A stretch of 64,000 nt of DNA from Sipunculus nudus (Eukaryota > Annelida > Sipuncula > Golfingiida > Sipunculidae). Numbering within the stretch: the stretch's first letter is position 1; every line of letters starts with the position of its first letter. Positions 30,801 to 54,670 of the stretch are shown here, one piece after another. The DNA lies in assembly GCA_026874595.1 (NCBI GenBank), contig CM049316.1, forward strand, positions 50,787,676 to 50,851,675. The letters are read 5' to 3'. The notes below the pieces were generated by a model. That model saw only the letters and a list, made by a program, of their open reading frames with translations. It made no database searches and had not been told where the DNA came from. The translations under genes and the position numbers were made by a program.

Positions 30801-30937
30801 TTCAGCTGCAGACATCCAGGCTATTATGCAACACACCTCACTCTATTTCCCCTTGCCACTCAATCGATGCCTCACTTCACCCGTCCCACTCTGATTTTGG
30901 CGGATACACGTAGTCGCTTGTTGACTACTCGTATTCT
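27866..30937 (+). mobile_element. Family C element with intact termini
   Basis: The 5' end carries a perfect hairpin CCGCCAAAAC-AGA-GTTTTGGCGG at about 27868-27890. The ~278-bp tandem core follows, and the 3' end is GTAGTC-GCTTGTT-GACTAC then TCGTATTCTAG. The element lies between B sequences that are contiguous elsewhere in the window. Family D is inserted at about 28036, where an empty C site (GCGCCCTCATTTTTGGTTGA) is visible at about 17210. Confidence 0.8.
28036..29392 (+). mobile_element. Family D Helentron-like element (HINE-like)
   Basis: The 5' tip forms a hairpin, ATGCCCCCGCCAC-AAA-GTGGCCGGGGCAT, with one C/C mismatch. The core is seven tandem units of about 180 bp, each starting near TACGGACTTTTTTTCGCAAT and containing CAGATATTGGCCTGATTTTT and GTTGACCTACTTTTGAC. 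The 3' end has GTGTC-ATTC-CGACAC then ATCTAG at 29387-29392. The filled site, compared with the empty C copy at 17.2 kb, shows insertion inside TTTTT with no target duplication beyond T. CTAG ends plus T/T insertion match non-autonomous Helentrons with tandem cores, known from bivalves. Reading frames in it are period artefacts. Confidence 0.8.
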
Positions 30938-34973: not shown

Positions 34974-37900
34974 TAGCAAACCTGTGAGCTTATGCGATGG
35001 TGTGGCGCCAATGTCTGTACCTATACCCATGCTATCTCGAAAACGTCAGGAGCTAGCATCACCAAACTTTATGCAAAAGTCAGTCATCTAAAAAACTCTA
35101 TCGTATTTTGCTTATTTTTTGGCTATCTGCATTTTCTAAGATTTTATTTGGAAAAGCTAATAAAAAACTTTTAAAAGTCTTCTCCAAAATCGTCCAGCCA
35201 AATTGTCCAAAAATTTAGTCATATGCCATAACAGCCCATTTTAGCTCAGTGGCTACAAAGATCTTCTTCTCAAAAACCACTGGGCCAAATTCTTAAATCT
35301 TATACATTAATTATCCTCAGATGTTGATAATTCAAGTTGGTTCAAATGGTTTTGGTTCAGTGCTTTTTGGCTGAGTTACGGGAAGCTGAACTTAGCCAGT
35401 TTGCTGTATCTTCCTATATGAGTTATAAACCTGTGAAACGTTTTTCGACTGATGCCACTGAAGCCAGTTTGTTAAATATATTACATAATAATCCCTACAA
35501 TAATTCTTATAATAATTGTCATTTATGGTTCCACATAAATGATTTTTGGCTGAATTATGGAGATTGAATTGAGTGATTTTACCATATATGATAATTGTGT
35601 GAAGCAGATACATCTAGCCTGGCACCAGTTTATCAGCATTTGTTACATCATCATGCCTCTAGACATTTAGATTTCAGGTTATCCATGGTTAATATTGACA
35701 AGAATGTTTTTTTAAAAGCTTTTAAAAAATTTAGATTTATGATTTCATTTATTCCTCATGCCAGGCAATGTTTACAATCACAGGTATACAGCTCTCTGTG
35801 GGCTGTATAGATGGCTGTACATGGATTATAAATAATTGGTATCCATACTCAACTTAATTCAAGGTTTTGCCATCAGTGAGATGTATCTGTATTATAATTT
35901 TGCATTAAATATGCATCTGTAGTCATTTTACCTTAGTTAGCTGTGTTATGCTGTTACATCTAGCCCGGCATAAGTTTATCAGCATCTATTTCATCATGCC
36001 ATTAGACATTTAGATTTCAGGTTATCTTTGTTTTTTTTTAAAGCTTTTAAAAAAATTAGATTTATGATTTAAATTATTCATCATATCAGGCAATGTTACA
36101 ATCATGGATATTTGGCTCTCTGTGGCTATATAAAGACAACTGTACGTGGATTATAAATTAATGGTATTCATACTCAACTTAATTCAAGAATTTGCCATCA
36201 ATGAGATATATCTGTATTTTAATTTTGCATTCAGTATGCATCCGTAATAATTTTACATATATTCCTGATATCTTTTTTATAAAAAGTCAGCTGAAAAGCA
36301 TTTTGTATTGGGAAAATTAATTTAAAATTTATTTCAAGTAGGGACCACTTTTGTGTACAGATGTCAGCACTTAGTTCACATGGGCAGATTGCCAGTGCCT
36401 TGATGTTGGCTATTAGCCAAGATGATATCAGCTCTTTAAATAGTTTTGGCACAGTGCCTGGATTGGAAGAAGTGCAGCCAGGTATAGGTCAAGAGTTCAC
36501 TCAGTGCAGTAGCTGCATTCTGTATATAGCTTTGGCAGACTGCTCACTGAATCATATTTGGCACCAAAGTGCAGCCTGAATCTATTTATAGCTTTGGCAG
36601 ACTGCCAACTGTGTCAGATTATGCAACAGGTCAAGAGTTCACTCAGTGCAGCCAGGTACAGGTCAAAAGTTCACTCAGTCTAGCCAGGTGCAGGTCAAGA
36701 GTTCACTCAGTGCAGTAGCTTGAGGCAGCAATTTGTCACAGGTCACTCGGGGGGCAACTGCCTTACTCATCTAAGCCTTGTCAGCCCAGTGCATCAAACT
36801 CTTGGGAAGTTTGATGGATTGTATATATGTCATATCTGATTTTGAGGTATTGGTGGCGTCACCTACATTGATGTGTTTTTTACAAGAGAAAATGTAATTT
36901 TAAACTTTTCTAGCTTATACACTGATTTATGATGAAACTGTTAAGCTGATTGGTTTAAACTTTACAAGAATTATTCTACGGTAGGGTTCTGCTAGTTTTA
37001 TCAGAAAAGATTGGGTAAATATTGTTTTAAAAAAGCATTGTAGCCAATTGAAAAAGGCTTTCTGTATTTGAAAACAGATTTGACAACATGCTGAGTTTCA
37101 GCAGCCAAGTCAAGAGGTCACTCAGTACAAACAGGTGGGGTCAAGACATCACCATGGCAACTGACCTTGCTCTTGGGGGGGGGGGGGTGCCTAGACAATG
37201 TGTCTAGACGTCTAGACACAGCGTCCAGACGTCTAAACACAATGTTTAGATGCAGAATTCCCAGATTATTGGAACTATATCTTTCAACTGTTTGAACTTG
37301 TTTGCATTTTTATCATCAGGTCACATATGAACTGCTGGCCCCTCAGTTTTGGTTGACCTCTGACCTTTCCTCGCTGCCCAGCGTTCATTTGTGTGTCTGT
37401 TTCCACACATAAACCTGCATATCTCGGGAACCGTTTAACCGATCAGGCTAAAAATTTTGCACAAATGTAGCACTTTGATAGCTTTATAACATACACTAAA
37501 AATGGTGGCGCGACCTAAAACCATTTTGGCACAGCGTCCATCTGTTCATCTGCCTTGGGATAATATCACTCAATCCTCAGCAGTGGTTTGACTTATCCAC
37601 CTGAAATTTTGCAGGTTTATACATCCTGGACAGCTTTTTCGATTTTATGACAGGTGGTGCCACCTACATTCACGTTTACCCTGCAGACATCCAGGCTCAT
37701 ATCTAGGGAACCGTTTGACCGATTAGGCCAAAATGTTGTATGTGTATAGATCTCACATAGCTCTTCATCATAGGCAAAACTGATGGCGCCAACTGCAACC
37801 ACTCATGCACAGTGTCCATCTGTTCATCTGCCTTTGGATAAAATCACTTATACCTCAGCAGTGGTTTGACTTATCCACCTGAAATTTTTCAGGTTTATAC

Positions 37901-38708
37901 ATCCTGGACAGCTTTCTCGATTTATGACAGGTGGCCCCACCCACATTCACATTTACTCTGCAGACATCCAAGCTCATATCTCGGGAACTGTTTGACCGAT
38001 TGGAGTAAAATTTTGCTTGTGTATAGATCTCACATAGTTCTTCATCATAGGCAAAACTGGTGGCGCCCCCTGCAACCATTAATGCACAGCACCCATATGT
38101 TCATCTGCCTTGGGATAAAATCACTCGTATCTCAGCAGTGGTTTGACTTATCCACCTGAAATTTTGCAGGTCGATACATCCTGGACAGCTTTCTTGATTT
38201 TATGACAGGTGGCGCCACCTACATTCATGTTTACTCTGCAGACATCCAAGCTCATATCTCGGGAACTGTTCGACTGATTGGGCCAAAATTTTGCTTGTGT
38301 ATAAATCTCACATAGCTCTCCATCATAAGCAAAACTGGTGGCACCACCTGCAACCACTTATGAACACCATCCATCTGTTCATCTGCCCTAGGATAAAATC
38401 ACTCATATCTCAGCAGTGGTTTGATTATTCACCTTAAATTTTGCAGGTTTATATATCCTGGACAATTTTCTCGATTTTATGACAGGTGGCACCACCTACA
38501 TTCACGTTTAAGCTGCAGACATCCATGCTAACATGCAACACACCTCACTCTATTCCCCTTGCCACTTTATCCATGCCTCTCTTCACCCGTCTTACTCTGA
38601 TTTCTGCGGATACACATAGTCGCTTCTCGACTACCCATATTCTAGTTTTAAAATGTCCTAGTCTGAAACTTGCAGGTCCTAAATGTCCATTTTGCTGAAA
38701 TCATAATG
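34974..38708 (+). mobile_element. Family B element with C nested, interrupted by LINE
   Basis: The head TAGCAAACCTGTGAGCTTAT is at 34974. Middle sequence and the 32-bp minisatellite (about 36480-36720) are present. A poly-G run at about 37174-37187 and a palindrome cluster follow. A third C copy spans about 37318-38645 (~278-bp units, 3' CGACTACCCATATTCTAG). Flanking TTTTAAAATGTCCTAGTCTG then matches 18763 onward until the old LINE begins at about 38709. Confidence 0.6.
37200..37219. repeat. 20-bp perfect palindrome in a GTCTAGAC cluster
   Basis: GTGTCTAGACGTCTAGACAC is its own reverse complement. Degenerate relatives flank it on both sides (CTAGACAATG before it, GTCCAGACGTCTAAACAC after it), giving a short cluster of nested inverted repeats just after a 14-base G-run. 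Confidence 0.9.
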
Positions 38709-38728: not shown

Positions 38729-39059
38729 TGATGAGGATCAGACGTGTGTGATCAGAGTAGTTGTGAAATGCTTCCAACTGTGAGAATATTGTTCACCATT
38801 AGTCTTACAAATCGGCATGCGGAGGTATTGTGTATATTTCTATAAAATAGTGTTGGAATTTTTCGTAATGGGAAAGAACAACATCTGCTTTTGGAAGCTG
38901 AAATTTTCAATCATATAAACAAGGAAACCAATACGTGGCCGGACACATTTCTATTATTCTGAGCTCTTACATAAGAGGCAGGCTTTAACACTGTGCCGGG
39001 GTCTCAACTGCAAATTAGTGAACTGTGACACACGCGATCGCGCTTGTGTGATGATAAAC

Positions 39060-40183
39060 ATGGCACATGAACATAGACTTAAAATGGATACCAGGGCACA
39101 AACAAAAGTGGTGACACCAAAACATTCGACAGGAACCCCAAAGTCCAAGAAACTTACTTCGCCAGATGGTGAAAGAGGTGAGCAAGGAACACAGGTAATA
39201 GATATGACATACATGATTAAAAGTATGAGAGAGCTACAAAGCCAGATTGAAAAATTGAATAATTCCATGGTTGGTCTTACTACAGAGGTTGGTCAGTTAA
39301 GAGCCGAATTTGAAAACTTTAAAAGCTTACAAGATTCTCTTGAACACACACAGACTGAGCTATAAGAGACTAAGTCTGAACTGAAAACATTAAAAGAGAC
39401 GGTAAAAGCACACGAAGGGGTGAACTCGAAAATATTGCAACAGTTAGAAGAAAATAGATCCGAAAATCATGATCTAAAAGAGAGACTTTTACATTTCAAC
39501 ACTTATTTAAAGAGAGAGAACTTGAAATTTTCTGGACTACTTGAAGATTCTAACGAATCGAGTACTATGTGTAAAAAGAAAATACAGAATCTGTTTGTGG
39601 ATAAGCTGGGTGTAGACAATGTGGAAGATATTGAATTCCAGCGTTGTCATAGGTTGGGGGATCCTTCGAGAAACCGGAATAAGTGCAGAGATATAATTGT
39701 TCGGTTTGTCCGGTTTGGTGATAGAGATTGTGTATGGAGGCTGAGAAATAAACTGAAGGGAACCAACATAGTTATGATGGAGGACTTTCTGATGGAAATG
39801 AACAAAGGCGGGTAAAACTGTACCTGATTATGAAGAAAGCGCGCATAATGAAAATGAAGGCTACATTGGTGGCCGATAAACTGATTATTGAAGGACACAG
39901 GTACACAGTGGACAACTTAGATGCTCTTCCTGACGGACTGCAGCCTCATCAGTTAGCGATGCACTCCTGTGAGAATGCCATTTTATTCCATGGGCAAGAT
40001 TCAAATTTCAGTAGTTTTAGTGCCTGTCTCTTTATACTGAATGGGAGACGATACACTTCAGTAAATCAGTATTTTCAGTATCAGAGAGCTATGGTCATGG
40101 GAAATGAAGAAGCCGCCGGTGAGATTATGAAAACAAATATACCTGTTGAGCAGTACAAGATGGGTAGCAGAGTGCAAACGGAT
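39060..40183 (+). pseudogene. LINE ORF1 (coiled coil, RRM-like, CTD) fused to N-terminal half of a NADAR domain
   Basis: Start ATG at 39060 has a good Kozak context (AAACATGG); an in-frame ATG also lies at 39051. Heptad-rich coiled coil covers roughly residues 40-150 (SMRELQSQIEKLNNSM, then QLRAEFENF). An L1 ORF1-type RRM follows (RENLKFSGLLED, FQRCHRLGDPSR, RDIIVRFVRFGDRD), then a CTD (KLIIEGHRYTVDNLDALPDG). Without a stop the frame runs into a NADAR-like segment: AILFHGQDSNFSSF, RRYTSVNQYFQYQRAMVMGN, EEAAGEIMK, YKMGSRVQTDK. Breaks: in-frame TAA at 39363-39365, a frameshift at about 39812-39830, and the transposon at 40183. NADAR proteins remove ADP-ribose from guanine; ORF1 proteins bind LINE RNA. 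The fused role is inference. Confidence 0.8.
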
Positions 40184-40938
40184 AAAGCCCCGTTCCCACT
40201 TTCACGAATTGGACGCCGAATCGCTACGATGTTGAATTCGTGGCGATTCGTGGCCAATCGGCCTGTCGAGTGATAAAAATTCCATCACGACCACGATATT
40301 GTACGAAAGGAGTACGATGCCAGTACGATTGGCTACGACAGTGACACGAAGCCAGCACGATATGACAGGAGACTTTTAAGAATGTTCACGGCTCCGTGAC
40401 GATGTCTAAGATACTGGTACGATATTTCCACGATTGATCTGCGACTTGTGGACGATACTCCTACGATCATTCAATTTTGCCACGGATTGATAGATAGCTA
40501 TATATGTGCTATATAGCTATATAGCTATTGTAATGTCACAAAGAAGACGATATTAGTAAAAGGACACCATAACAACACTTTACTCAACTTCTCCAGATAT
40601 TATAATTTGACAAAAGTTATCCAGTTTAAAACACTAATAATATATGTCTCATTTGATTTGAGTAATTAGACAATTACGCCTTATTTATGTGGTGGCAAAT
40701 ACGACGTTAACTTCTTTAAGTCCAAGTAGACGACCGTCTTAATCGGATGTAAAATATCTGTACTCTCAAAATATTGGTTAAAATATCTTATTGATTCAGC
40801 TCTCAATGTGATATAAGATTCTGTTAATATAAATTTGTGTTAGGCTCAGTTCACTCTCTCATAGTAAAATAGGAAATTCATAATTTATTATATTGACCAT
40901 ATGTTTAAGTATGACGAAACTGTATAATATATTCAGCT

Positions 40939-40948
40939 TCTTTAAACT

Positions 40949-40949
<1 letters not shown>
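40939..40949. repeat. Target-site duplication, left copy
   Basis: TCTTTAAACTG, identical to 49592-49602. It marks target-primed insertion of the minus-strand LINE. Confidence 0.9.
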
Positions 40950-40985
<36 letters not shown>

Positions 40986-40987
40986 CT

Positions 40988-40993
40988 TTATTA
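40988..40993 (-). terminator. Polyadenylation signal AATAAA of the young LINE
   Basis: TTTATT on the plus strand (AATAAA on the minus strand), six bases before the poly(A) tail. Confidence 0.7.
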
Positions 40994-41534
40994 ATCAAAT
41001 GAAGTACATGTACAACGACGAATATCAATTTACAATTTCAACAATATATAACAATACGCGATCCATATACATACAAAAACAACAACAAAAAAAACCCCAA
41101 AAAAAACATACAACTGACATACATAAGAACCAAAGGAACCTACATACACCGAAACAAAACAAGACAAAGCAGGTGTATCTCATGCGCATTTTTTAAAATT
41201 AAAATTAACTGTTTTATTTCTTTGTAAGCCTCTTCCTATTATAATAACTTGAGTAGAATTTATATAGTATATTTATTCCATTTATTTAATTGATTAATAT
41301 ATTTAAATGAATCTAATAAACACTTCACCTCCCCCCTGTCGATATTAAGCATGGTTTAAGTTGGTAATTGGTTTCCAGAGATTTTCATGATATTTAAGTT
41401 TTCCTCTGGAAAGTGCCACCTTTTTTTCAATGTCATAGTAATATTTTATGAAATTTCTTGCACCATTAAATGACAACACCTCTCTTTTACACTTTTTCAC
41501 ATATATGTAATATTTTACAAAGAGTATAATTTTG

Positions 41535-44500
41535 TTATAAGGTTGTAAGCCAGTCATATATTTTTTTCCAAAGTTCCTTGGTATAATCACATTCATAAAA
41601 TATATGTGTGATGGTTTCTTTCTTACTGTTACAAAAAGTACATAGTTCACTCTCTGTAATACCGGCTTTAGTCAAGAATGGGTTTAATGCAAGAATACGA
41701 TGCACAATTTTGTATTGAAAATACCTTAGTTTTGTAGAAATTGTTATGTTATCAATATTCTGAAAAGCTTCATGTATTTCATCTCTTGTGCACTCTCCTA
41801 AATCTCTGTGCCATATTAAAATACAATTTTCTGGCTGAGTGCATTTCATCGCAACCAGTTCATTATAAAAAAGGTTTGTAGGGTTTGCATGTTGAATTAA
41901 TCTATTAATTTTATATATATATGCTCCCTCATAGTAGTTATAAATAATTTCTGTTCTCCATTTATTTGGTATTGCATGTATAAGACTGTTATATCTCATT
42001 GTGTCTATATGTATTCCATATATATCCTGTAATTCAAGTTTACTGAACAATGTATACTGGTTATTTTTTTTCTTGATTAAATCATGGATATATCGAATTC
42101 CTGCTTCATACCATATTTTATAGAATGCAAGTTTACCATTAATTTTAATATGTGAATTACACCACAGTGACTGTTTCAAATAATCCCCGACTGTTTCTGG
42201 TGTATCATAGTTGAACTTGCACCATTCTTGCAGGATTTCAAACCAAAAGTTATTTAATTTTCTTAGAAAAGGAATGCTATGCATATCTTCATATTTCATA
42301 TTGCAAGTGAAAATATAAGCAGTCATATGCTTTAAACTTGTATCTATTAAATGCCTCCATCCAACATCTGTGTTTCCTGTTAACAATCTCTTTATCCAAG
42401 TAATCTTTGTGGCTCTAACTTTTGACCAGATATCCACCATATTCAATCCTCCATACTTTTTTGGTGCTATTAAAGTGCTTCTTTTTATTTTATCTATTTT
42501 GCTATTCCATATGAAATTACTGAGTAATACCTCTATTTCCTTTAAGTAATGAGGTAGTATATTAGGTAAAAGAGATATATGGTACTGTAATTGTGATATC
42601 AATTCAGATTTTATAACTGTAATTTTTCCTATTGGCGTTAACTGTCGTTTGTTCCAAATATTTATCATGTTTTTTATTTTTGTGATTGATGGTTTGAAGT
42701 TTAAATCAGTTAAATTTTGTAATCTATTATTAATTTGAATACCCAGTACCGTCACTGGTCCGGTAGTCCATTGGAGGCCCATATTAATTATTTCATTTTT
42801 TCCATGTTCATGGTTTCCTATTGGCATGATTATAGTCTTTTCCAAATTAATTTTTAGACCACTTATAGAGTGGAATCGGCTAAACTGATCAACGGTTTCT
42901 TTAATAACCTCGGGTCTACTTTCTATAAACAATGACGTATCATCTGCATATTGTGATATTTTATGTATTTTGTTATTTACCTCTATACCTTTTATTTCTT
43001 TATTATTTCTAATTCTTGTAGCCAATATTTCTGCACAAATGATAAATAAATATGGTGACAGGGGGCATCCCTGTCGGACTCCCCTGTTAATATTAAAAAA
43101 ATTCGTGGACCAGCCATTATTTAATACACATGATGTTATATCCTTGTAAAAGACCTTTATCCATTGACTTATGTTATTCCCAAAGTTGTAATAATCAAGA
43201 GCTTTATGTATAAAAGGCCATTCTAATAAATCGAAAGCTTTTTTCAAAATCTATAAGCATAAGATTAGCTTTTACTTTATTATTACTGCAATGTGAAAAT
43301 AAACTATAGATCCTTGTGATAGTTTCTCCAATATACCTATTGCGCAAAAATCCAGTCTGGTCGGAATGAATAATGTTTGGAAGTACTTTTTGTAATCTAA
43401 GAGCTATACATTTTGTAATAAGTTTATAATCAAAATTCAAAAGCGATATTGGTCTCCAGTTTTTTAATAATTGAGGATCCTTTGATTTTTTTGGAATTAA
43501 TGTTATAACGCCTTGTCTTTGTGATATATTAAGTCTGCCTTCTGTAAAAGAATAACTATATGAAGCCATTAAGTCTTTCTTGATATTTTCCCAGAATATT
43601 TTATAAAATTCTGCAGGCAAACCATCAATACCTGGCGATTTGCCATTCTGGAATGTTTTCAAACAATCTTCAAGTTCACTTTCGGTTAATTCTTTATCAC
43701 AGTTATTTTTTTCTTCTTCTGAGAGGGTTTCGGGATTATCTTGGAAAAATTCATTAACAATTTCTATAGGTGGCTGTTGCTGCTCTGAAGAATATAATTT
43801 AGTATAAAACGTTGATATTTCCTTCAGAATATTATTCTCGTCAGTAATATATTGAACATCTTTTTGCTCTGATGATTTTTCAATTTTTAGTTTTGTGATA
43901 GTTTTTCTGTTATGCAACCTTTTTTCTAAATTTAAAAAATATTTTGACGGTTTTTCCCCTTCTAAATACCAGGTTGTTTTACATCTTAGCATAGCACCTT
44001 CCGTTTTTTCTTGCATTATGGTTTCAATTTTAAGTTTCAGTGCATTTATTTCTTCTAAAAGATTCTCATCGGGTTTTTTCCCGTACTGTTCTTCTAATTC
44101 TGCTAATTTGGACTCTGTATGCTGCAATAGCTCTCGTTTTTGTTTCATTTGTCTAGAAGCATATGCAATCGTTGCCCCCCTTACCTTACATTTAATCGTA
44201 TCCCACATCAAGGCTGGATTAGCATTACTGTTAAATTCTTTTGTTTCTATGATGGTATTTTTAATTAATTCTATGTATTCTGGAATCTGTAAATATTTAC
44301 AATTAAGTTTCCAAAACCCTGGTCCCCTTTTCCTATATTTTAAATCGAGCCTAATTCCGATTGATGAATGGTCTGTTTTAAAACCTGGAAAGATCCAGCT
44401 GTTTTCCACATTTCCAACAAGGCCTTTTGATATTAAGAAAAAATCTAGTCTACAGAATATATTCGATGGTCTTAATCTTTTCCAAGTGAACTGCTGAAGT

Positions 44501-45051
44501 CGCGGATGTTGATCACGCCATATATCTACCATATCTAAATTGTCTAACCACATATGTATTATATTCTGTGCTCTTTGATGAGTTGTAGGATTACCTCCTT
44601 TTTTATCCTCCTTTATATCTAAAACTAAATTGAAATCGCCTCCCATTAATCTGTTATCATTGGGAAAGGATTCAACGTATTCCATTATTGTTTCGAAAAA
44701 GTCTGGACTATCATGGTAAGGCCCATATATATTCACTAATGTAAGTCTTGATTCTTCAATTATAATATCTAATAATAGAAATTGCCCTTTCTCGCTTCTA
44801 ATAATATCCTGTATTTCAAAATTAAGATCATTTTTTATCAAAATACATACTCCTTTAGAACTGCTTGTGCCATGTGAAAATAATATAGTACCTCCCCACT
44901 CGGCTCGCCAAGTTTTTTCATCTTTTGGGGTACTGTGTGTCTCTTGTAAAAAAAATACTTTAGCTTTTTTTTTATGTAGCCAATGGAAAGTTTCTCTTCT
45001 TTTAATACTATCCCCCAATCCCCTCACATTTAAAGAGACTATTTCAGCCAT
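41535..45051 (-). CDS. LINE ORF2: APE endonuclease and reverse transcriptase, one 1-bp frameshift
   Basis: About 1170 codons, the usual L1/Tx1 ORF2 size. The start is ATG at 45051 (MAEIVSLNVRGLGDS); an upstream TTG is not needed. The N-terminal ~235 residues are an APE-like endonuclease (SLNVRGLG, FLQETHS, VNIYGP, GGDFNLVLD, CRLDFFLIS, TDHSSIG). The reverse transcriptase follows: KSPGIDGLPAEFYK, NWRPISLLN, DQTGFLRNRYIGE, LMLIDFEK/AFD (motif A), GVRQGCPLSPYLF, QYADDTSLF (catalytic YADD) and LGIQINN. The C-terminus has a zinc knuckle, CTFCNSKKETITHIFYEC. The reading shifts at about 43242-43247, where an A-run is six instead of the five needed for FEKAFD. All motifs are otherwise intact, so this is a recent mutation or a sequencing slip. 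ORF2 nicks DNA and reverse-transcribes LINE RNA at the target. Confidence 0.92.
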
Positions 45052-45840
45052 TGACAAAATAGTGCAAAATAATCTTTGATAGACTATAGCTTACATCACA
45101 TTCTTGTCTAAATATAAACCTTTTACCTGCATACGAGCAACATATAAATCGGTGCATATGTGTTTGTGCATTTGTATACAATACTACATATTCACATAGC
45201 TGTTGTACATAAACCTTAAACATAGTGTCTTTACATATACGGTGTCAACGAGACCCTGCTTTCAAAAAAACATGTAGTACTCTTCGCTTATTTATATAAT
45301 GTCTAATACATATTCATGTATTTCTGCTCACACAATGTTAGACAAATATTATGCGAATATATGAAGTTGCATATATACTCATTAAAGCCAAACGGACCAC
45401 CTTATTAGAAGATGATTAATTACTCCAACTAGTTAATGGAGAAAAAGGAACGATGTCAATGAGGTAACTACCACCTGCTTGCCTCTATTAGAGGTGCCCA
45501 TCTAGACCTAATAGGAATATATAGGGTTCTTGTATTAACCTACTCAATGCCAATAAACCAGATTATTAAAATTAAGCACTAATGATGACAATATGTCTGC
45601 TTCATTTGTCTAACTCTCTTTTGTAAATCACAGGTAGAAAAATGCACTAAGTCCATCATAGTTTCAAAAACTTAAAAAACTCATATACCTGTTCATTCTA
45701 TCAAAGAGATTCTTTTTTATGGTATTACCTTTTATAAATCTGAACTGATCTCCATCAGTTTACTTTCAATTACCTCCAAGGTAAACATGTGTAAAAAAAC
45801 TGTACTTTTAATAATATAATGGATATATATATATATACAC

Positions 45841-45883
<43 letters not shown>

Positions 45884-47572
45884 CACATACATACATCCAT
45901 TCTATAGCCTGTGTTACACTCGGTACCAACCTCTGAAAATAAATCAGTTTGATGACCTTAGAAAATCATTGGCTAATCTATTTACAAGGTCCAAAAAGGA
46001 GTAACTTTAAAGTCGATATGGCGAGCATTTTAACTTCTATATATATTTATATGAATAAAGAACTCTGAATAATTATAACACTAATCTATGTTCATTAAAC
46101 AAAATTCCAGTGTGATTTTTATATTTTAAAGTCTAATCATTTATACAACCCTTTATTACTAAACTGTTGAAGAAATCACCTCATATATGCGGCTTTTAAT
46201 ATTACATTTCACAACCAAAAATATTTAAAATAAAACTCTAGAGCTGACAGTATCGCAAGCAATCTTTCTAATTCTTCTTTATGCAAAAATCATTGTTTTA
46301 AGATCATTGCTGTATTACATGGCTGTACAATTGTTATTATTCATGTTAAACAAACACCATACTCCGTAGTGCATTTTTGCGCTTATAATTCTCTGGTACT
46401 ACTCAGAATACTGTTTCAAGGACCTATATAATTGTCAAAATACACCATGAAGGTAAACTCAACCTACCATTATTTCAGTCCAGTTGACTGATTTCACCTC
46501 GGGAAAACAAACGCTTTTTCTACATCTAGACCGCATGCAACAATACTAAAATAACCAGTAATACCTTTCAATAAAAGTAAAATACACTTTCCATATCAAC
46601 ATATCAACAAAAGAGCAACTGTGAATATTACCAAAGTTGTTAGTATATTCTTACATTAACCGCAATATACATAAAATCATCAATAGTTCATATTCTAATG
46701 CAAACAACATCAGTACTTACCATTTTGATTCTATTCATCAGATTTCATTCAACTCATATGTCTTTTCCTTGTTGAAATTAAGATAAGCATGATGCTATAC
46801 ATGTTATATTTGTCAAGGTGTTTGGCCTCTTAAGTTCGAAAAATTTCAATCTTTATTAATAATACCATCTTATATAGCAACTCTATTTTAAAACTAGTAT
46901 TATTTCTAAAATATTCCGGTATGCTACTTAAAACATCAGTTTCGTAACTTTATTATTTGACATTAACCTAGGTGGTTGTCAACTGGTTGATGTTTAATAT
47001 ACAACAGTTTTAACATAAGGAAAAAACATGCTCAGTCCATGTTCAAATTATCCAAATGTACATACATGATACATATTAATGTTTCAGCCATCATAACCGA
47101 AGAATCAGAATTTTCATGTGCTACTTTACATGTATTAAGATATTTCTTTAAACATTATTTTTGAAATGCCATTTATGTTTATTCTACATATAGTACAAGT
47201 CTTCATATTATTTGAACATTCAGTTTCTGAAGGTACATTGAAACTATTCTTACTATAGTCTATACTATAGAGGTTGTACTTTTTACGATGATACCTTTCA
47301 CTTTATTGTTGTGCACTTAACATCCATATTTGTTTCAGTTTCACCTGACCTCCAAATGTTCATTCGGTGTCCAGAATAAAATGTTGTTTTAATATCTATC
47401 AACTTTTAAAGTTAGATCCAGCTGTCATTACAGCCGGTATCTTCTTAAATCTTCGGATTGTGATTCTCAACTGAGTACCAACACTATTTAGTTTTAATAC
47501 AGCAAGAAGGGATACAATCAAAGATTAATCTAATTCTACGCACAAAAGAACGGTAGTCTCTCTGGTCGAAGG

Positions 47573-47607
<35 letters not shown>

Positions 47608-48539
47608 TGTGATCTCTCTTTGATGAAACATGAGGAAGTCAGGTTGAAAACACATCAATATTGATTGTAATACTTCTATCCAAATTACTTAGACGGCACC
47701 GCTTAATAACGCATTTTTAAAACATGTAATAACATATAAATGTGACATTGGTATTTAAGAGCAACACAAAATCACCCAGTTTTCACTTTCCTTAAGTTTT
47801 TGTTTTCTGTGTCCTTTTTTTAATATCTTTGTTAATAACAAAATAATAAGAAAACAAGGAATAGTTAAATAAATTCATAAGTTTATGTTACATATACACT
47901 GCTCTCTACCAACGGATGTATCCAATTCTACGCTGTCACAATATTATGCCTGCATGTACCTTCACATTATCACGGTGTCATTAAAAGTTTCTCTGGGTAA
48001 ACCTATAACAGTTACACATCTGTAAAAACAAAAACAAAAAAAGCAATCCTCCCCATCATATCAATATTTCGTATGACATTTCATGTAATATAAATACATT
48101 TTGGCTAACCGAAGGAAAAAAAAAAAAAAAAAAGGGGGGGAGAAAAGAAACGGTTTACGGAGACCCAATACTAATAGACTTTTCCCCACAATACTTTTAT
48201 AAATAAAATTAAAAAAAAAAAAATAATAATAATAATAAAGGATTTAAATAATTTTTTTCCCACAATAACTCAGTCTGGAATATAATTTATAATCTTTTTG
48301 TTTTAGGTAAACGTTTTTAATTATATTAAAAGTTTTCTCAAGAATATGTGCCATACAGACCATCAGCTTTCCGGTATAAGTGTCCAGGTGAGCGATAAAG
48401 AGCATGAAGAGTACAAAGTATGTGTCGCCTCCTATCAGGCAATTTTGGAAACAGTCTGTAGCTCCGCCGTTCACTACTTGGTGATCAAAAACACATTTGT
48501 GCGTGTAAGGTTCTATTTGTGAATGAAGCATTCTCCGAC
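45052..48539 (-). other. Unusually long (~3.5 kb) spacer between LINE ORF1 and ORF2
   Basis: AT-rich, with no convincing reading frame, no TIR and no hairpin element recognised. It contains a (TA)n tract near 45826-45890 and A-runs at about 47571-47602, 48117-48133 and 48209-48221. A 99-codon minus-strand frame overlaps the ORF1 stop at 48543 but starts with GTG and resembles nothing I know. L1/Tx1 spacers are normally tens to a few hundred bases. I could not find a target duplication that would show a clean secondary insertion. Confidence 0.7.
45826..45890. repeat. (TA)n / (CATA)n microsatellite
   Basis: TATATATATA runs with interspersed CACATA units inside the LINE spacer. Confidence 0.9.
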
Positions 48540-49481
48540 TCACTGAATTTCAACTCTCCGGCCGTCTATGATCAATGCCCCACGCCAATATCTTGCCTTC
48601 AGGTTGTCTTTGTAGGCCTGTTGAATTTGCCCCTTGGCTTTTCTTTTCAGTAAATAATCCTCACGAGTCAGGTCCTCGGTAATGAAAGGGGTATTGTTTG
48701 CCGACCTGTTCGCTCTAGCGGTCTTTAAGATTGTATTTCTAGTTTGTCTTGAATGACACCTAAAAATAATATGGCGACCTTTGTCTTGTTTTCTGCCTGT
48801 TCTGTGAGCCAATTCAATTAGAGCTTTCACTTCTGGTACCTCAATCTCAGCACCTAGCAATCTATGCTCAATAATCCATTTACTTATTATGTCTTTGCAG
48901 TTCTCATTTTGATTTTCGGGTATTCCGATTAATCTAAGATTGAATTCCCTTGTGTGTCTCTCCAGATTCAATATTTTTTCTTTCAGGCTTGTTTCCATGT
49001 GTTCAATTTTGTCCATCAGTGTTCTTTCACTATTTTTCAAGTTCTCGTTCTCCTTCTGCAGCTGTTTGTTCTCTTTTTCTAGTTGTTCTAATTTTTTGTT
49101 TTTGCTGTCATATTGCCTTTCAATAAAATCAACACTGTCACGTAGTTCTGTTATCTGCTCACCTTGTTCACGTGTTGTAGTTGTAACAGTCTCTATTTTA
49201 ACTTTTAATCCTGTCATCTCTTTGTTCAGTGATTCTCTGCATTCTTCAATGAGCTTGCACATTTTTTCTTCAAGTCCTTTAAAATGAATGTCCAAAGACG
49301 ACCGTCTCGTCTCGTCTTGTGTATGGGTATCCATGTGCTCTGTACCGCTGGCCGCCATGTCTGTTATACTTGTTGACCGTGTGTCTGCTAGTTCTGTCTG
49401 TGTTTGAGTTTCTTTGTTTTTCACCGGCAGGAACTCTTCCAAACCTTTTTGGCTTGTCGTATTTTTCCTTGTTTTACCCAT
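48540..49481 (-). CDS. LINE ORF1 protein (L1 ORF1p-like RNA-binding chaperone)
   Basis: 313 aa, intact, ATG at 49481. Residues 1-65 are a polar, T/S-rich leader. About 66-175 is a long coiled coil for trimer formation, with heptads and runs such as LEQLEKENKQLQKENENLKN. About 178-262 is an RRM-like domain beginning TREFNLRLIGIPENQNENC, with LAHRTGRKQDKGRHIIFR, and about 263-313 is the CTD (FITEDLTREDYLLKRK, ending YWRGALIIDGRRVEIQ). This is the Transposase_22 / L1 ORF1p architecture. The protein would coat LINE RNA and act as a nucleic-acid chaperone. Unlike the older LINE's ORF1 it stops at the CTD, with no NADAR extension. ORF2 begins only ~3.5 kb downstream. Confidence 0.93.
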   Translation of the reverse strand: MGKTRKNTTSQKGLEEFLPVKNKETQTQTELADTRSTSITDMAASGTEHMDTHTQDETRRSSLDIHFKGLEEKMCKLIEECRESLNKEMTGLKVKIETVTTTTREQGEQITELRDSVDFIERQYDSKNKKLEQLEKENKQLQKENENLKNSERTLMDKIEHMETSLKEKILNLERHTREFNLRLIGIPENQNENCKDIISKWIIEHRLLGAEIEVPEVKALIELAHRTGRKQDKGRHIIFRCHSRQTRNTILKTARANRSANNTPFITEDLTREDYLLKRKAKGQIQQAYKDNLKARYWRGALIIDGRRVEIQ

Positions 49482-49570
49482 TTTTGTGTACCTCTAAAGG
49501 ATATAAGAGGCGGCACTTGCTTTTTTTTTCTCTAATGAAGCAGGAGCTCGTGAAGACGTGTCCTAGAAGT

Positions 49571-49582
49571 CGCGCATGCGCA
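49571..49582. promoter_or_regulatory. NRF1-type site at the young LINE's 5' end
   Basis: CGCGCATGCGCA matches the NRF1 consensus YGCGCAYGCGCR in full and lies 9 bases inside the 5' end of the minus-strand LINE. A near-palindromic CpG site at the start of a ~110-bp 5' UTR is a plausible internal promoter. Motif-only evidence. Confidence 0.5.
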
Positions 49583-49591
49583 GTCCGAACC

Positions 49592-49602
49592 TCTTTAAAC
49601 TG
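49592..49602. repeat. Target-site duplication, right copy
   Basis: TCTTTAAACTG, followed by TTTTGGTTCAAATTT of the host TIR element. Confidence 0.9.
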
Positions 49603-49606
49603 TTTT

Positions 49607-49910
49607 GGTTCAAATTTATTTTGTCAACCAATATCCACGATAAAAAAATTTCTTTAAAACAAATTTACTAAACTACATAGTTTATCCACTGCAAAAAGTT
49701 CCTTGTTTGTTTACAAAGAAGTTACAAATTACAAAGGAAACGTAATTTGATTCAGCTTCTTCAAATTATTTTAGTTCAAATTTAGTTGGAACCAATAACC
49801 ACAATACAAATCTTCTTTAAAACAAATTTACAAATCTACACAGTGTTCTTACTTCTAAACCTTATTCCTCATTGGTTTGTAAGAAGTTAAAAATCACTGA
49901 GAAAATAAAA
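49607..49910. repeat. ~155-bp tandem repeat inside the TIR transposon
   Basis: TTGGTTCAAATTTATTTTGT...CCAATATCCAC...TTTCTTTAAAACAAATTTAC at 49607 recurs as TAGTTCAAATTTAGTTGGAA...CCAATAACCAC...CTTCTTTAAAACAAATTTAC at about 49770. The LINE target lies at the start of the first unit. Confidence 0.75.
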
Positions 49911-50342
49911 TTTATGATGTCAGTTCTTGATGATTCGTCTCCAAATTCGTGGAAGTAGGAAGGGGTTTTATGAACGTGACTCTCTCTTGAGAGGTTCTTG
50001 TGGTAGTCGTATTGTAGTCGTGTTGAAGTCGTGTCGATGTCATTTTCCTTCGTGAGCATTCGTGACATTGTTTTACATCACGAATTTACAAGAATTATGA
50101 AGACTCTCATACGACTTACCAAGAAACTGTTACGACTTAGCTACGACTTGTGACGGCAAAGCTTAATTTTTGAACATTTCAAAAATAGCGCCACGAATTC
50201 TGAGTGCTCAAGACCTCGCAACGAACATTACCGAATGTTCAAGACATCATCTACGACACTCCCACGACGTCCCTACGAATTTTAATGATGCATGTTCGTG
50301 GAGATTCGGCGTCAAATTCGTGAAAGTGGGAACGGGGCTTTA

Positions 50343-50595
50343 AGACCAGTGGAATGACACAGTGGCCGAACAAATAATGGAAGCAGCGGTCAGAGCAAAG
50401 TATGAACAAAACACTGCCCTCAGAAATGAACTCTTAGAAAATGGTGACAAACTTTTGATAGACTGTAATAAATTTGACAAATTTTGGGGTGCTGGACTCG
50501 GTTTAAATGATGCCAATGCAAATATAAAATCCAAGTGGCGAGGTAGAAATGTGTTCGGTGATATCTTGATAAGAGTCCGAGATTGTATGAAATAG
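50343..50595 (+). pseudogene. C-terminal half of the NADAR domain of the old LINE's ORF1
   Basis: From GAC at 50344 the frame is open to TAG at 50593-50595 and reads DQWNDTVAEQIMEAA, VRAKYEQNTALRNELLENGD, then FDKFWGAGLGLND, WRGRNVFGDILIRVRDCMK. These match the NADAR C-terminal signature: a W before the M..A...K helix, N..L...LL..GD, FWG.G, W.G.N..G..L..VR. The N-terminal half ends at 40183-40186, before the inserted transposon. The junction frame differs by one base unless a small deletion is assumed. Combined ORF1 length would be about 460 codons. No host exon structure is seen. Confidence 0.85.
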
Positions 50596-50935
50596 TGACA
50601 TTCTGGGTACTTGTGGTATGGGTTTACAGTTTCACATCTGAGAAACAAAACCACTATTTTGAGGGTGATTTTTCATGTTTATTAATATACAGTGTTATTG
50701 TTACCATAACTACAAGATATAATAATTAAATCTCACGAGGAGGCATTGAGCTGACGACAGTAATGATCATCAATATTGGAATGGTGAGAAGTCTGAGGAT
50801 TCTGTTTATATTTGTACAACTTGACATTTTTGACAAGTTACTTTTGGGATGTAAATGTAATGGCGATCCAACATATATAGTTTTAAACTTTTTGATGTTT
50901 TGTGGGGTATTAAGTTCATAATTACTTTTCAAGGT

Positions 50936-53900
50936 ATGAGTGAGTGTTATTTTACCAGCTTAAATGTTAATGGCCTAGGAGATAAGAAAAAACGTCGACA
51001 GATATTTAGATGGCTTAAAGGATTCCATAAAGGTTTTATATTTTTACAAGAGACGCATTCTGAGCAATCGATAGAACAAATTTGGAAAAATGAGTGGGGT
51101 AGTAATATTTTATATTCACATGGTACTTCAAATAGTAAAGGAGTAGCCATTTTGTTTCCAACTTAATGTGAAAACACATTTGAAGTGCAGATAAGTGACA
51201 AATATGGAAGATACTTGTTCATGTTGTTGAATTTAAATGAGCAAAAGTTTGCAATGGTGAATTGTATGCGCCAACTGGTGATCACATGCAGGATCAATTA
51301 AAAATCCAGGAAGAAATAGAATCGCACTTGTATAAATATTTAGAGACACACACTGATTGTACCATTATATTAGGTGGAGATCTTAATACTTGTATAAATC
51401 CTAGTTTGGATAGATGTCCTGTTTTGAACAAAGCTAGGACGCGGTATGCACAGGCTATAGTAAACATGATGGATGTATTTAAACTTGTTGACATCTGGAG
51501 ATTACGCAATATCAATGAAAAAGGTTACACTTATCAGCAAAACAGACCAAAGATGCAATCACGTCTAGATTATTGGTTAGTAAGTGAGCATTTACAATTT
51601 AATATTCTTAACACTCAGCTATGCCCAGCAATTAAAACTCTATTACCGTAATTCTAAATGAACAAAGAGAAGGAGGTAAGGGATTTTGGAATATTAATGC
51701 TGATCTATTGAAAGATAATACTTTCGTTAATGAATGTATAAATACTATTAAAACCAGTAAAGATCACAATAAGCGATTAATAAATAGAAACACGGCTTGG
51801 GAATTATTAAAATGTGATGTGAGGGCATTTTGTATAAAATACTCCACTGCAAAAGCGAAGGAACGTAGATCAGAAAAAGATCTGATAAATAGGGAGTTAA
51901 AAAAGAAACTAGATAATGATAAAAATGAGAAAGATGAAGTAAGATATGGACAGTTACTGTGTAAAATGGAACATATTAATGCCTACTATACCAAAGGAGC
52001 TATAATACGATCAAAAGCAAGTTATGTGGAATTAGGGGAAAGAAATACGAAATATTTTCTGAACTTAGAAAATAGAAATCAAACAGCTAGATCGATCGTG
52101 TCTTTAATGAAGGCCGATTCTTTAATTAAAAATCCAACTGATATACTTGAGCTACAGAAAGAATTCTATGAAGAAATTTATATGAAAGATAATACATCTG
52201 AAAAAAATGAAGATTTCTTTTTGAAAGGGTATAATGAGGATCCGACTTAAAGAGAAGATGAATCATCCTTTTGTGAAGTAGATATAACACTTAGTGAATG
52301 TTAACAAGCCTTAAGCTTAATGAAAAATGGAAAAAGTCGGGGAACAGACAGATTTACCGTCGTATTTTATAAATTGTTCCTGGTTAAATCTGAAAGAATC
52401 ATTATTACAATCGTATTCTTATTCTTTTGAAAATGGACTGCTTAGTGTAAAACAAAGAAGAGGGGTAATAAATTTAATACCAAAAATTGGCAAAGATTTG
52501 AGATATCTTAAAAACTGGCGTCCCATCACCTTGCTCAATACGGACTACAATTGTTAACAGAGGTTTTAGCCACACGTATGCAAAAAAATGTTACCTATAA
52601 TAATTTGTGAATTTCAGACCGATTATTTAAAAAACAGGCACATAGGTTGTAACATTAGAACAATAGAGGACCTTTATGATTATTGCATTGAAAAAAGTCA
52701 GAAGGGTATTATTCTAATTGTAGATTTTAAACAGGCTTTTGATAGCCTTAGTTGGAGCTTTATAAATAAAACTTCAGAACATTTTAATTTTGGACCACGT
52801 TTCAGAAGATGGGTTAAAATTTTATATACAAACATCGAAAGTTGTGTGATAAATAATGGGAATTCAACCAAACTTTTTAAATTGGAGAGGGGCATCCATC
52901 AGGGGTGCCCAATATCCACGCTGCTCTTTATAACTGCTGTTGAAATATTATCAATAAGAATCAGAAATGCTCAAGATGTTCAGGGAATATGCATAGGGCA
53001 AAATGATTATAGATTAGTACAACTAGCGGACGATACAACAATGTTTGTTGAGAATATGTATTCACTGGGATCAGTTTTAAGAGTGCTAGAATGATTTAAA
53101 TTGGCCTCTGGATTAGAACTTAATGTTGACAAATCTGAATACTGGGAAAGACACTGCCAGCAAAAGAGGCGTTACTTGGTATAAAAGTTAACAAGGGACC
53201 GTTTAAAATCTTGGGAGTTTGGTTTACAAACAATAAAATAGAGATGGATAAATTAAATTTTTCTTCAAGATTAGATAAACTGAATTGTTTGTTAAATATT
53301 TAGAGACAAAGAGTTCTGTCTCTGAAAGGAAAAATAACAATAATTAAAAGTCTTGCATTACCTCAGTTATTGTATGCAGTAAATATACTTTATGTGCCCG
53401 AGTGGGTCGTTCAAAAGGCCGAATCATTGCTCTATGCATTTTTGTGGAAAGGTAAGCCTGAGGAAATCAAAAGATATGCTATTTGTAATGAAATAAGCAA
53501 ACGAGGCTTGAACATTGTAGAAATAAAGAGTTTTCTGCAAAGTTTTAAGTTATCATGGTGCAGAATATTTTGTAATAGATGGTACCATCCGGTGGTAGAT
53601 GTATATTTCAAACGGCACACTCTCAGAGACTTTACCACATTTTCATATGGTCCCAAAGATATACCGATAAAATTACCTAGATTCTACAAACGGTTCCTGG
53701 AAATCCTTTGGAATTTTAAAAAAGAATTTTGTAACAAGGTTATTCTTAATGAGTCTCTCTGGTTTAACAGTAAAATAATGTTAGGTGGAAAAGTTGTTTA
53801 TTACAAATCTTGTTTTAAACAAAATGTTATTTATGTAAAAGATATAATAGAAGGTAAAAATATATAAACATTTGATAGAATTCAGGAGAGATTTAATATA

Positions 53901-54318
53901 CTGCCGGGAGAATACTTAAAGTATTTTAGTTTGGTAGATGCTATACCAGTAGCATGGAAAAAACAGATAAATGAGGGTCCATTAATAACAACTGAAACGG
54001 ATGTATTTACACTTTATACTAGTGAAGGGGACATCAATTTGTTAACAGCTAGAGTTCGGGACTTTTATCAGATATTTATACAAAATGTGTGTCATCACCC
54101 TTCATCAGTGGACAAATGGAATAGAAAATATGATGATATAGATTGGTCAGTTACATTCAGTTTGCCTTTTCATGTTCATAGAGACACAAAAATTCAGACA
54201 TTACAATATAAAATATTGACAATGATTTTTCAATGTAATAATAAGTTATTCAAATGGAAAATCATAAGCTCCCATAGATGTAATTATTGCAGTGAAATCG
54301 ACTCTATAGAACATTTTT
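50936..54318 (+). pseudogene. LINE ORF2 (endonuclease-reverse transcriptase), degraded and 3'-truncated
   Basis: Starts MSECYFTSLNVNGLGDKKKR. Endonuclease motifs: FLQETHS, GGDLNTCIN, SRLDYWLVS (to about 51650). RT motifs: NWRPITLLNTDY, ILIVDFKQAFDSLSW (motif A), GIHQGCPISTLLF, and QLADDTTMFV where catalytic YADD reads LADD. The C-terminal knuckle CNYCSEIDSIEHFL stops short of its last Cys because an A' element begins at 54319. Frame breaks: TAA at 51164, shifts near 51250, 51650, 52250-52330 and 52560-52590, a stop at 53092, and breaks near 53300 and 53865. Partner of the NADAR-bearing ORF1. Non-functional. Confidence 0.88.
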
Positions 54319-54670
54319 TAGCTCAGCTGAGCTATAGCGATCACTCTTTGTCCGTCGTCAGTCGTGCCGTATGGCCATTTTGCCGTCTGTCCGTTAACAA
54401 GGCACAAATCGTAACCGCTGGACCTGGAATCTTCTTACTTTACATCCAGAGAGGTCCATGAAAAATCTCCTTGAAAACCTGGAATTAGGTCTCTGTTACC
54501 CATATCCTTTGAGCTACAGGGCCCCAAAGTACCCCCCAGTATAGTAAAAAATTTCATACAAAAACTTCAGTATCTGATTAGCTACATCACTGATGGTCAT
54601 GATTTTTGCCATACATATTGATCATGAGATGTCCATCAGTTCCTTCAGACTGGTGGCGCCACCTGTATTT
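54319..54670 (+). mobile_element. A' fragment truncating the old LINE
   Basis: Begins TAGCTCAGCTGAGCTATAGC directly within LINE coding sequence (GAACATTTT). It ends with GGTGGCGCCACC (54652-54663) and TGTATTTTT, after which a full A head starts. Confidence 0.65.

What the first reader, a model, noticed from the sequence alone, without database searches (positions are those of the whole stretch)
39060..50595. A LINE ORF1 fused in frame to a NADAR (ADP-ribose-guanine glycosidase-type) domain
Seen: an L1-type ORF1 (coiled coil, RRM-like, CTD) runs without a stop from YTVDNLDALPDG into NADAR signatures (NFSSF, YTSVNQYFQYQRA, later FWGAGLGLND, WRGRNVFGDILIRVRD), then a spacer and an L1/Tx1 ORF2. 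Established: NADAR domains remove ADP-ribose from guanine, and pierisin-family proteins that ADP-ribosylate guanine in DNA are known from clams (CARP-1). Inference: the LINE may carry NADAR to reverse ADP-ribosylation of its RNA/cDNA or target DNA, a counter-defence. I know of no described LINE with this fusion.
Basis: partly seen in the sequence, partly recalled or inferred. Interest (0 to 1): 0.9.

Follow-up and report, generated by a model that had tools for sequence, protein, structure and literature searches.

The report
LINE ORF1 proteins carrying NADAR domains
A jumping gene in this animal-type genome carries an ADP-ribose-enzyme domain at the end of its RNA-packaging protein; several kinds of jumping gene here have such a domain, mostly with a changed active site, so it probably now serves as a binding part rather than the usual enzyme.

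Summary
The fusion is real. A decayed L1-superfamily LINE (window 38741-54320) has an ORF1 whose CTD runs in frame into a NADAR domain, followed by ORF2. A 10.16-kb nested insertion splits the NADAR; two other copies (87-95% nt) lack it and align straight across. A genome search found 13 loci with RRM-CTD plus NADAR in order. Other LINE lineages (zinc-knuckle ORF1) also carry NADAR near the ORF1 C-terminus. The NADAR tree rejects one common LINE origin (AU p 0.0055; group named after seeing a tree). Of 53 sampled NADARs in LINE-linked groups, none shows the full catalytic E/K/E set (2 incompletely covered), yet selection holds the domain in group H (dN/dS 0.18). Prior art: NADAR in ORF1 of several oyster Tx1 LINEs (PMC12477816), so the fusion itself is not new. 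Separate captures, active-site erosion, and a host TRIM gene with the same knuckle-NADAR module were not found in the papers I could search.

The parts
38741..54320 (+). Decayed LINE of the NADAR-ORF1 family (group A), extent known from alignment to other copies; interrupted at 40183-50342; true 5' and 3' ends not fixed
   Evidence: blastn: L014 87-94% over 38741-40187 and 88% over 50342-53260; L013 94-95% over 39364-40193 and 93-95% over 50342-54320, without 51590-52517
39051..39791 (+). ORF1 coiled coil (by reading) and L1-type RRM; TAA stop at 39363-39365
   Evidence: profile of five ORF1 pieces against LINE-1 ORF1p 2yko E 4.7e-7
39797..39946 (+). ORF1 CTD, in the frame that continues into NADAR
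   Evidence: open frame 39752-40273; the name CTD rests on order and recalled L1 ORF1p anatomy
39947..40182 (+). NADAR, first half (Pfam match itself 39998-40180)
   Evidence: PF08719 profile 10-79, E 5.7e-7
40183..50342 (.). Nested insertion: DNA-transposon-like element with terminal inverted repeats, interrupting NADAR
   Evidence: inverted repeat 40183-40229 / 50296-50342, 44 of 47; absent in L013 and L014
40954..49591 (-). Second, minus-strand LINE inside the insertion; ORF1 48540-49493 without a NADAR match, ORF2 in two frames 41535-45090
   Evidence: 15-nt direct repeat on both sides, 0 of 5000 shuffles reach it; poly-T 40950-40981; RVT_1, endonuclease, zf-RVT
50344..50592 (+). NADAR, second half; ORF1 stop codon follows at 50593-50595
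   Evidence: PF08719 profile 84-162, E 2.1e-20
50937..54320 (+). ORF2: endonuclease (about 50937-51648) and reverse transcriptase (about 52354-53136), in several frames with stops
   Evidence: Pfam Exo_endo_phos (below cut-off) and RVT_1 61.3 bits; tblastn with the minus-strand ORF2, 28-43%; human L1 ORF2p E 3.3e-17

Best explanation
The window holds a dead copy of an L1-superfamily LINE whose ORF1 protein ends in a NADAR domain, in frame after the L1-type RRM and CTD (shown). The genome contains a group of such LINEs (A and A'), and another LINE lineage with a different, zinc-knuckle ORF1 also carries NADAR near its C-terminus (shown for sampled loci); the two NADAR sets do not come from one capture (tree test). 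Most likely working (inferred): NADAR is an accessory module of the ORF1 particle, held by protein-level selection, that has lost or changed the canonical ADP-ribose-guanine glycosidase site and acts by binding - to ADP-ribosylated or other nucleic acid, to an ADP-ribose-type ligand, or to a protein partner - while the RRM/CTD or knuckle part binds the LINE RNA. Identity as LINE ORF1-NADAR about 0.97; a binding or scaffold role rather than the canonical hydrolase about 0.55 for the window family and higher for groups B2, G and H.
For: Colinear copies without the nested insertion; 13 loci with RRM-CTD plus NADAR; intact junction in L013, a 350-aa open frame with NADAR at 117.1 bits. None of 53 loci in LINE-linked groups shows E43, K50 and E125 together; 51 have a seen substitution, L087 and L094 lack one position. 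N-R-D is shared by the window, L013 and L014, so it is not decay of one copy. D130, W133, four glycines, N170 and R180 are kept in window and L013. Group H pooled dN/dS 0.178 with synonymous sites saturated between its two halves; L013 against L009 NADAR: synonymous differences 0.80 per site, nonsynonymous 0.35, 45% amino-acid identity. Separate capture: AU p 0.0055; a six-row RT tree groups the NADAR-less minus-strand LINE with A and A' against B1, G, H (99/96).
Against: No structure or assay. The group A changes are conservative (K-to-R kept activity in vitro, Asp natural elsewhere), and most of A' keeps K50 and E125, so a working or altered hydrolase remains possible. Young groups give weak selection signals: dN/dS G 0.748, B1 0.785, A 0.769, A' 0.713, B2 0.472. 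The tested clade was named after a first tree had been seen, and the trees have about 160 columns with long branches. The single-sequence fold of the ORF1 piece failed (mean pLDDT 49.8).
Confidence: 0.6

Rival explanations
1. One reading: the NADAR is an active glycohydrolase that strips ADP-ribose from guanines of LINE RNA, cDNA or target DNA and so counters a host ADP-ribosylating defence.
For: NADARs of bacteria, a phage and an oomycete remove ADP-ribose from guanine (PMC11543638, section 12 and passages; PMC11125620, passages). Group E, where a NADAR ORF precedes a LINE-type endonuclease ORF in L007, keeps E43 and K50 where covered and has E or D at 125. Group A changes are conservative; most of A' keeps K50 and E125.
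Against: No full E/K/E set in 51 of the 53 LINE-linked loci, and the other 2 are incomplete. B2 has Y, G has L or H, H has L or M at E125 in the covered loci, and G has C at K50. No host guanine ADP-ribosyltransferase was sought.
Confidence: 0.25
2. NADAR is a structural passenger: captured by chance and kept only because ORF1 folds or assembles with it, with no ADP-ribose-related role.
For: Pocket residues differ widely between groups while fold residues are kept; related LINEs do without it (minus-strand LINE; about 67 of 130 rows match only or mainly the RRM-CTD part).
Against: At least two captures of the same domain by LINEs, plus Ectocarpus Gypsy elements (PMC12477816, passages) and several RNA and DNA virus groups (PMC9503650, passages), speak for a recurring use.
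Confidence: 0.15
3. NADAR belongs to a separate host gene beside an unrelated LINE.
For: The window copy alone is broken and interrupted.
Against: Thirteen loci with the fused order, nine with one match across the junction; nucleotide colinearity through ORF2.
Confidence: 0.01

Closest known systems
Tx1 LINEs of Crassostrea gigas with NADAR in ORF1 (Repbase entries reported in PMC12477816)
   Same: Tx1-type LINE with a YbiA-family NADAR domain in the ORF1 protein
   Different: No sequence of those families was available, so kinship is untested; the passages read do not mention position in ORF1, catalytic state, several captures or ORF1 type
[quoted passage not shown]
   Same: Retroelement carrying NADAR; that paper suggests processing of RNA intermediates
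   Different: LTR element, NADAR in Pol
YbiA and DarT1-linked NADAR glycohydrolases (PMC11543638; structures 2b3w and 8bau matched)
   Same: Same Pfam domain and several fold residues
   Different: E43, K50 and E125 replaced by N, R, D in the window family
SNA-3 of nematodes (PMC9303266, passages)
   Same: NADAR domains in an RNA-related animal protein; the functional residues are not conserved in its first NADAR
   Different: Host trans-splicing protein, not a retroelement
LINE-1 ORF1p and ORF2p
   Same: RRM of ORF1 and RT of ORF2
   Different: No NADAR (recalled)

Membership tests
NADAR superfamily (PF08719) | Profile match over the curated cut-off | tested here: met
   C-terminal half 74 bits, cut-off 35.1; N-terminal half 30.4 bits, below it; uninterrupted relative L013 117.1 bits
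NADAR superfamily (PF08719) | Catalytic E43, K50, E125 (oomycete numbering) | tested here: not met
   N, R, D in window, L013, L014
NADAR superfamily (PF08719) | Pocket residues W89, D130, W133 | tested here: met
   kept in window and L013; L014 has L at W133
NADAR superfamily (PF08719) | Removal of ADP-ribose from guanine | not testable with these tools
   needs an assay
L1/Tx1 LINE superfamily | L1-type ORF1 with RRM | tested here: met
   2yko E 4.7e-7, 2ldy 1.2e-6 from a profile of five ORF1 pieces; single sequence only 0.0094; Pfam Transposase_22 not found in the window ORF1
L1/Tx1 LINE superfamily | ORF2 with APE-type endonuclease and RT nearest to L1 | tested here: met
L1/Tx1 LINE superfamily | Target-site duplication and 3' tail of this copy | not tested
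   element ends not fixed; homology to L013 stops at 54320
Tx1 clade in particular | Placement among named Tx1 families | not tested
   no Repbase sequences in the tools
TRIM proteins (for L027 and kin, seen in passing) | RING and B-box before the C-terminal domain | tested here: met
   zf-RING_2 4.8e-7, zf-B_box 7.8e-6, NADAR 1.1e-26 in L027, the one of this group scanned; L040 gave NADAR but no RING or B-box at E 0.01

The most novel reading that the evidence does not exclude
An arms race around one module: LINEs captured NADAR at least twice and turned it from an enzyme into a binding part of the ORF1 particle, and the host then fused the zinc-knuckle plus NADAR end of a LINE ORF1 to a TRIM ubiquitin-ligase body, making a restriction factor that co-assembles with or competes against LINE ORF1 particles, comparable to TRIMCyp against retroviruses.
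Probability: 0.25. Interest if true: 0.9.

Novelty: new variant of a known kind. Interest (0 to 1): 0.62.

Why it matters
ORF1 proteins are the less understood half of LINEs. A domain of the ADP-ribose system that was taken up more than once, is held by selection and yet has lost its usual catalytic residues points to a use of NADAR other than its known chemistry, and gives a set of natural variants (near-canonical in group E, conservative changes in A, eroded in B2, G and H) with which to test what NADARs bind. The TRIM-NADAR genes that share the LINE module offer a directly testable case of exchange between a host gene and a LINE protein.

Tried and rejected
Considered and rejected: NADAR as a neighbouring host gene (copies); catalytic changes as decay of this one copy (shared by L013 and L014); one common origin of the A and B/G/H NADARs (AU p 0.0055; the group was chosen, so the p-value is indicative).

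Led nowhere: viral-contig scan (three pattern matches, no relative); AlphaFold of the window ORF1 piece without alignment (mean pLDDT 49.8); Rfam (no match). Phage records match the second NADAR half at best 35-39% identity (196 records, 20 listed) and served only as reference sequences. The dN/dS for the first window half against L013 (1.23) is not used because that stretch begins in the wrong frame; one search's other values cover whole ORF pieces, NADAR only, is the one quoted. Paper searches: 20 of 104 listed; mostly an author name; 15 of 15; 2 of 2; 20 of 25; TRIM with NADAR, 20 of 40 listed, none relevant by title; 5 of 27; 6 of 6; 1 of 1; 0. Among what was listed only PMC12477816 reports NADAR in LINEs. 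The bivalve transposon paper PMC10294476 was seen as a listing only.
Full report
What is in the window. The ORF1-NADAR-ORF2 order is real. Stop-to-stop reading gives ORF1 pieces at 38919-39365 and 39366-39815 in one frame (a TAA between them at 39363-39365), then a frame change near 39795 and an open frame 39752-40273 that holds the CTD and the first NADAR half. The second NADAR half is 50344-50592, with the stop at 50593-50595. Pfam NADAR matches the halves at profile positions 10-79 and 84-162 of 163, E 5.7e-7 and 2.1e-20. The first half alone (30.4 bits) is under the family's cut-off of 35.1; the second (74 bits) is over it. The coiled coil was judged by reading only.

40183-50342 is an insertion: 47-nt terminal inverted repeats, 44 of 47 matching, with TA or TAA at the joints (the flanks fit the uninterrupted copies to within one base). 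Inside it a minus-strand LINE is flanked by an exact 15-nt direct repeat that 0 of 5000 shuffles reach; NADAR is not among the 25 of 28 weak Pfam families shown for its ORF1 (48540-49493). Order of events by nesting: NADAR LINE first, then the TIR element, then the minus-strand LINE.

It is a family. Two other places of the same genome align to the window at nucleotide level: L014 from 38741 and L013 from 39364, to 40187/40193, and directly on from 50342 to 53260 or 54320, at 87-95% (L013 lacks 51590-52517). L013 has RRM, CTD and NADAR in one open frame of 350 aa, NADAR 117.1 bits. Searching the genome with 316 aa of L013 (126 of 922 candidates scored, so counts are lower bounds) gave 130 rows. 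Counted by hand: 38 rows belong to A or A' loci. From them I read 13 loci, the query's own place and the window included, with both the RRM-CTD and the NADAR part in order, nine with one match across the junction (some with stops inside); four further loci with NADAR only (36% identity or more); and three with the RRM part only. 25 rows are NADARs of other groups. The remaining 67 match only or mainly the RRM-CTD part at 30-44% and look like other LINE families without NADAR; I did not cross-check each against the NADAR list. L009, a divergent relative (46% over 313 residues, two stops inside), has ORF2 about 2.7 kb downstream (L033, 36-42% to the minus-strand ORF2).

Other carriers. A Pfam NADAR search of the whole genome gave 141 matches, 150 of 204 candidates scored. 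I examined 92 distinct NADAR loci besides the window (94 with a hit, less L010 and L012, which repeat L013 and L014); the rest were not fetched. Groups by nearest labelled relative: A 5, A' 6, B1 7, B1-like 4, B2 6, G 16, H 9, C 16, D 4 (one of them weak, L038), D2 1, E 7, I 3, J 2, phage-like 4, K 1, L 1. Of the 20 loci fetched with long flanks, 7 have ORF2 downstream (L013, L014, L023, L024, L025, L030, L031); the other 13 are of groups C, D, K and L. B1, B2, G and H have an ORF1 with knuckle(s), then NADAR, then a tail of some 35-85 aa, followed by ORF2: L030 (424 aa; zf-CCHC 3.4e-5, NADAR 3e-26), L036 (464 aa; zf-CCHC 5.9e-4), L037, L039 and L041 (endonuclease frames by reading), L102 for G and L103 for H (ORF2 25-45% to the minus-strand ORF2; knuckle by pattern only). 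For group E, L007 has a 198-aa NADAR ORF followed by a LINE-type endonuclease. C is NADAR fused to a GDSL/SGNH-like domain (L017 scanned); no ORF2 match lay in the C loci seen. B1-like loci were placed by similarity only.

Active site. Numbering follows the oomycete NADAR of PMC11543638 (section 12 read), where E43, K50 and E125 contact the ligand and were tested through their E. coli C7 counterparts. States at these three: the four phage sequences, YbiA and oomycete E-K-E; window, L013, L014 N-R-D; L009 M-K-E; B1 mostly E-R-N; B2 E-K-Y where covered; G E-C-L or E-C-H; H mostly E-R-L; C mostly E-K-E; E E-K-E or E-K-D where covered; TRIM-NADAR L027, L029, L032 E-K-Q. Of 53 loci in groups A, A', B1, B1-like, B2, G and H, none shows E-K-E; 51 show at least one substitution, and L087 (E43) and L094 (E125) lack one position. 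Since L013 and L014 share N-R-D with the window, it is a family trait and not decay of one copy. It is not proof of inactivity for group A: K95R kept activity in vitro (but did not rescue cells), E88A had a minor effect in vitro while E88Q was inactive, and Asp is natural at the E125 place in one subfamily. For B2, G and H loss is far more likely.

Selection. Pooled pairwise dN/dS of the NADAR part (Nei-Gojobori): H 0.178 over 9 copies, with synonymous sites saturated between its two halves and dN there 0.23-0.34; D 0.129 (3), E 0.181 (3), C 0.213 (6); young groups G 0.748 (9), B1 0.785 (5), B2 0.472 (4), A 0.769 (2) and A' 0.713 (2), where decay after insertion probably dominates. L013 against L009: pS 0.80, pN 0.35, 45% amino-acid identity. 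So the domain is held at the protein level over long times in H and between A and A', with a non-canonical site.

Origin. In a tree of 60 NADAR rows a branch with 100/99 support splits {A, A', C, E, phage, oomycete, YbiA and two single loci} from {D, D2, B1, B1-like, B2, G, H, J}. In a 26-row tree, holding the A, A' and B/G/H NADARs together is rejected, AU p 0.0055; the group was named after the first tree. An RT tree of six rows puts the NADAR-less minus-strand LINE with A and A' against B1, G and H, 99/96. Both fit at least two separate captures.

TRIM-NADAR. L027, L029 and L032 encode 643-676 aa; L027, the one scanned, has RING, B-box and NADAR. The knuckle CX2CX4HX6C just before NADAR is shared with B1, B2, G and H; the A, A', C and E representatives tested lack it. 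Searched against the genome (66 of 763 candidates scored), L027 gave 67 rows: four genes on C5 (one matching only residues 96-674, with a stop), two rows of one gene on C3 (L040, where Pfam saw NADAR but no RING), six rows of LINE group G that all begin at residue 443, the knuckle, and 55 rows matching only the TRIM part. In the 26-row tree D sits with G and H (91/93), but B/G/H without D is not rejected (p 0.11). A module swap between LINE and host gene is therefore likely; its direction is inferred (knuckles are usual in retroelement proteins, recalled). TRIMCyp is recalled; only a search listing was seen.

Prior art. PMC12477816 (passages) reports NADAR at the start of Pol in a Gypsy lineage of Ectocarpus and, from Repbase, NADAR in ORF1 proteins of several Tx1 LINEs of Crassostrea gigas; it suggests processing of RNA intermediates. 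A search for YbiA with retrotransposon found only that paper; searches for NADAR domain, DUF1768, and TRIM with NADAR listed no further LINE case. Papers outside this library were not searched.

Limits. Organism not named; animal nature is inferred from TRIM-like genes and LINE types. Genome searches were mostly unanswered, so counts for B, G and H come from the Pfam search alone. No usable structure was obtained.

Noticed in passing
L027:5330-7357 (-), L029, L032:1076-3004; genome C5:28.22-28.93 Mb and C3:12.31 Mb (L040): TRIM-type genes (RING and B-box in L027) ending in a CX2CX4HX6C knuckle plus NADAR, the same module as in ORF1 of LINE groups B1, B2, G and H; pooled dN/dS 0.129 for three genes
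   Followed up: partly
L015-L019, L021, L022, L026: NADAR followed by a GDSL/SGNH-like hydrolase domain (L017 scanned), E-K-E at the three catalytic places; L017 also has a 510-aa ORF upstream with PHD finger and a weak Ulp1-protease match, perhaps another transposon kind
   Followed up: partly
L005-L007, L011: Short NADAR ORFs with E-K-E or E-K-D, two at C5:80.12-80.17 Mb and two at C3:77.79-77.80 Mb; in L007 a LINE-type endonuclease ORF follows
   Followed up: partly
window 40183-50342: TIR element hosting a minus-strand LINE whose ORF1 and ORF2 are about 3.45 kb apart
   Followed up: partly
window 17506-18651, 21331-22476, 29527-30822, 37498-38529: 277/278-nt tandem repeat present in four places, the last just upstream of the LINE
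   Followed up: no
L038 (contig C133): Partial NADAR match in a 355-aa ORF on a 76-kb contig with another long ORF; could be a foreign or contaminant contig
   Followed up: no
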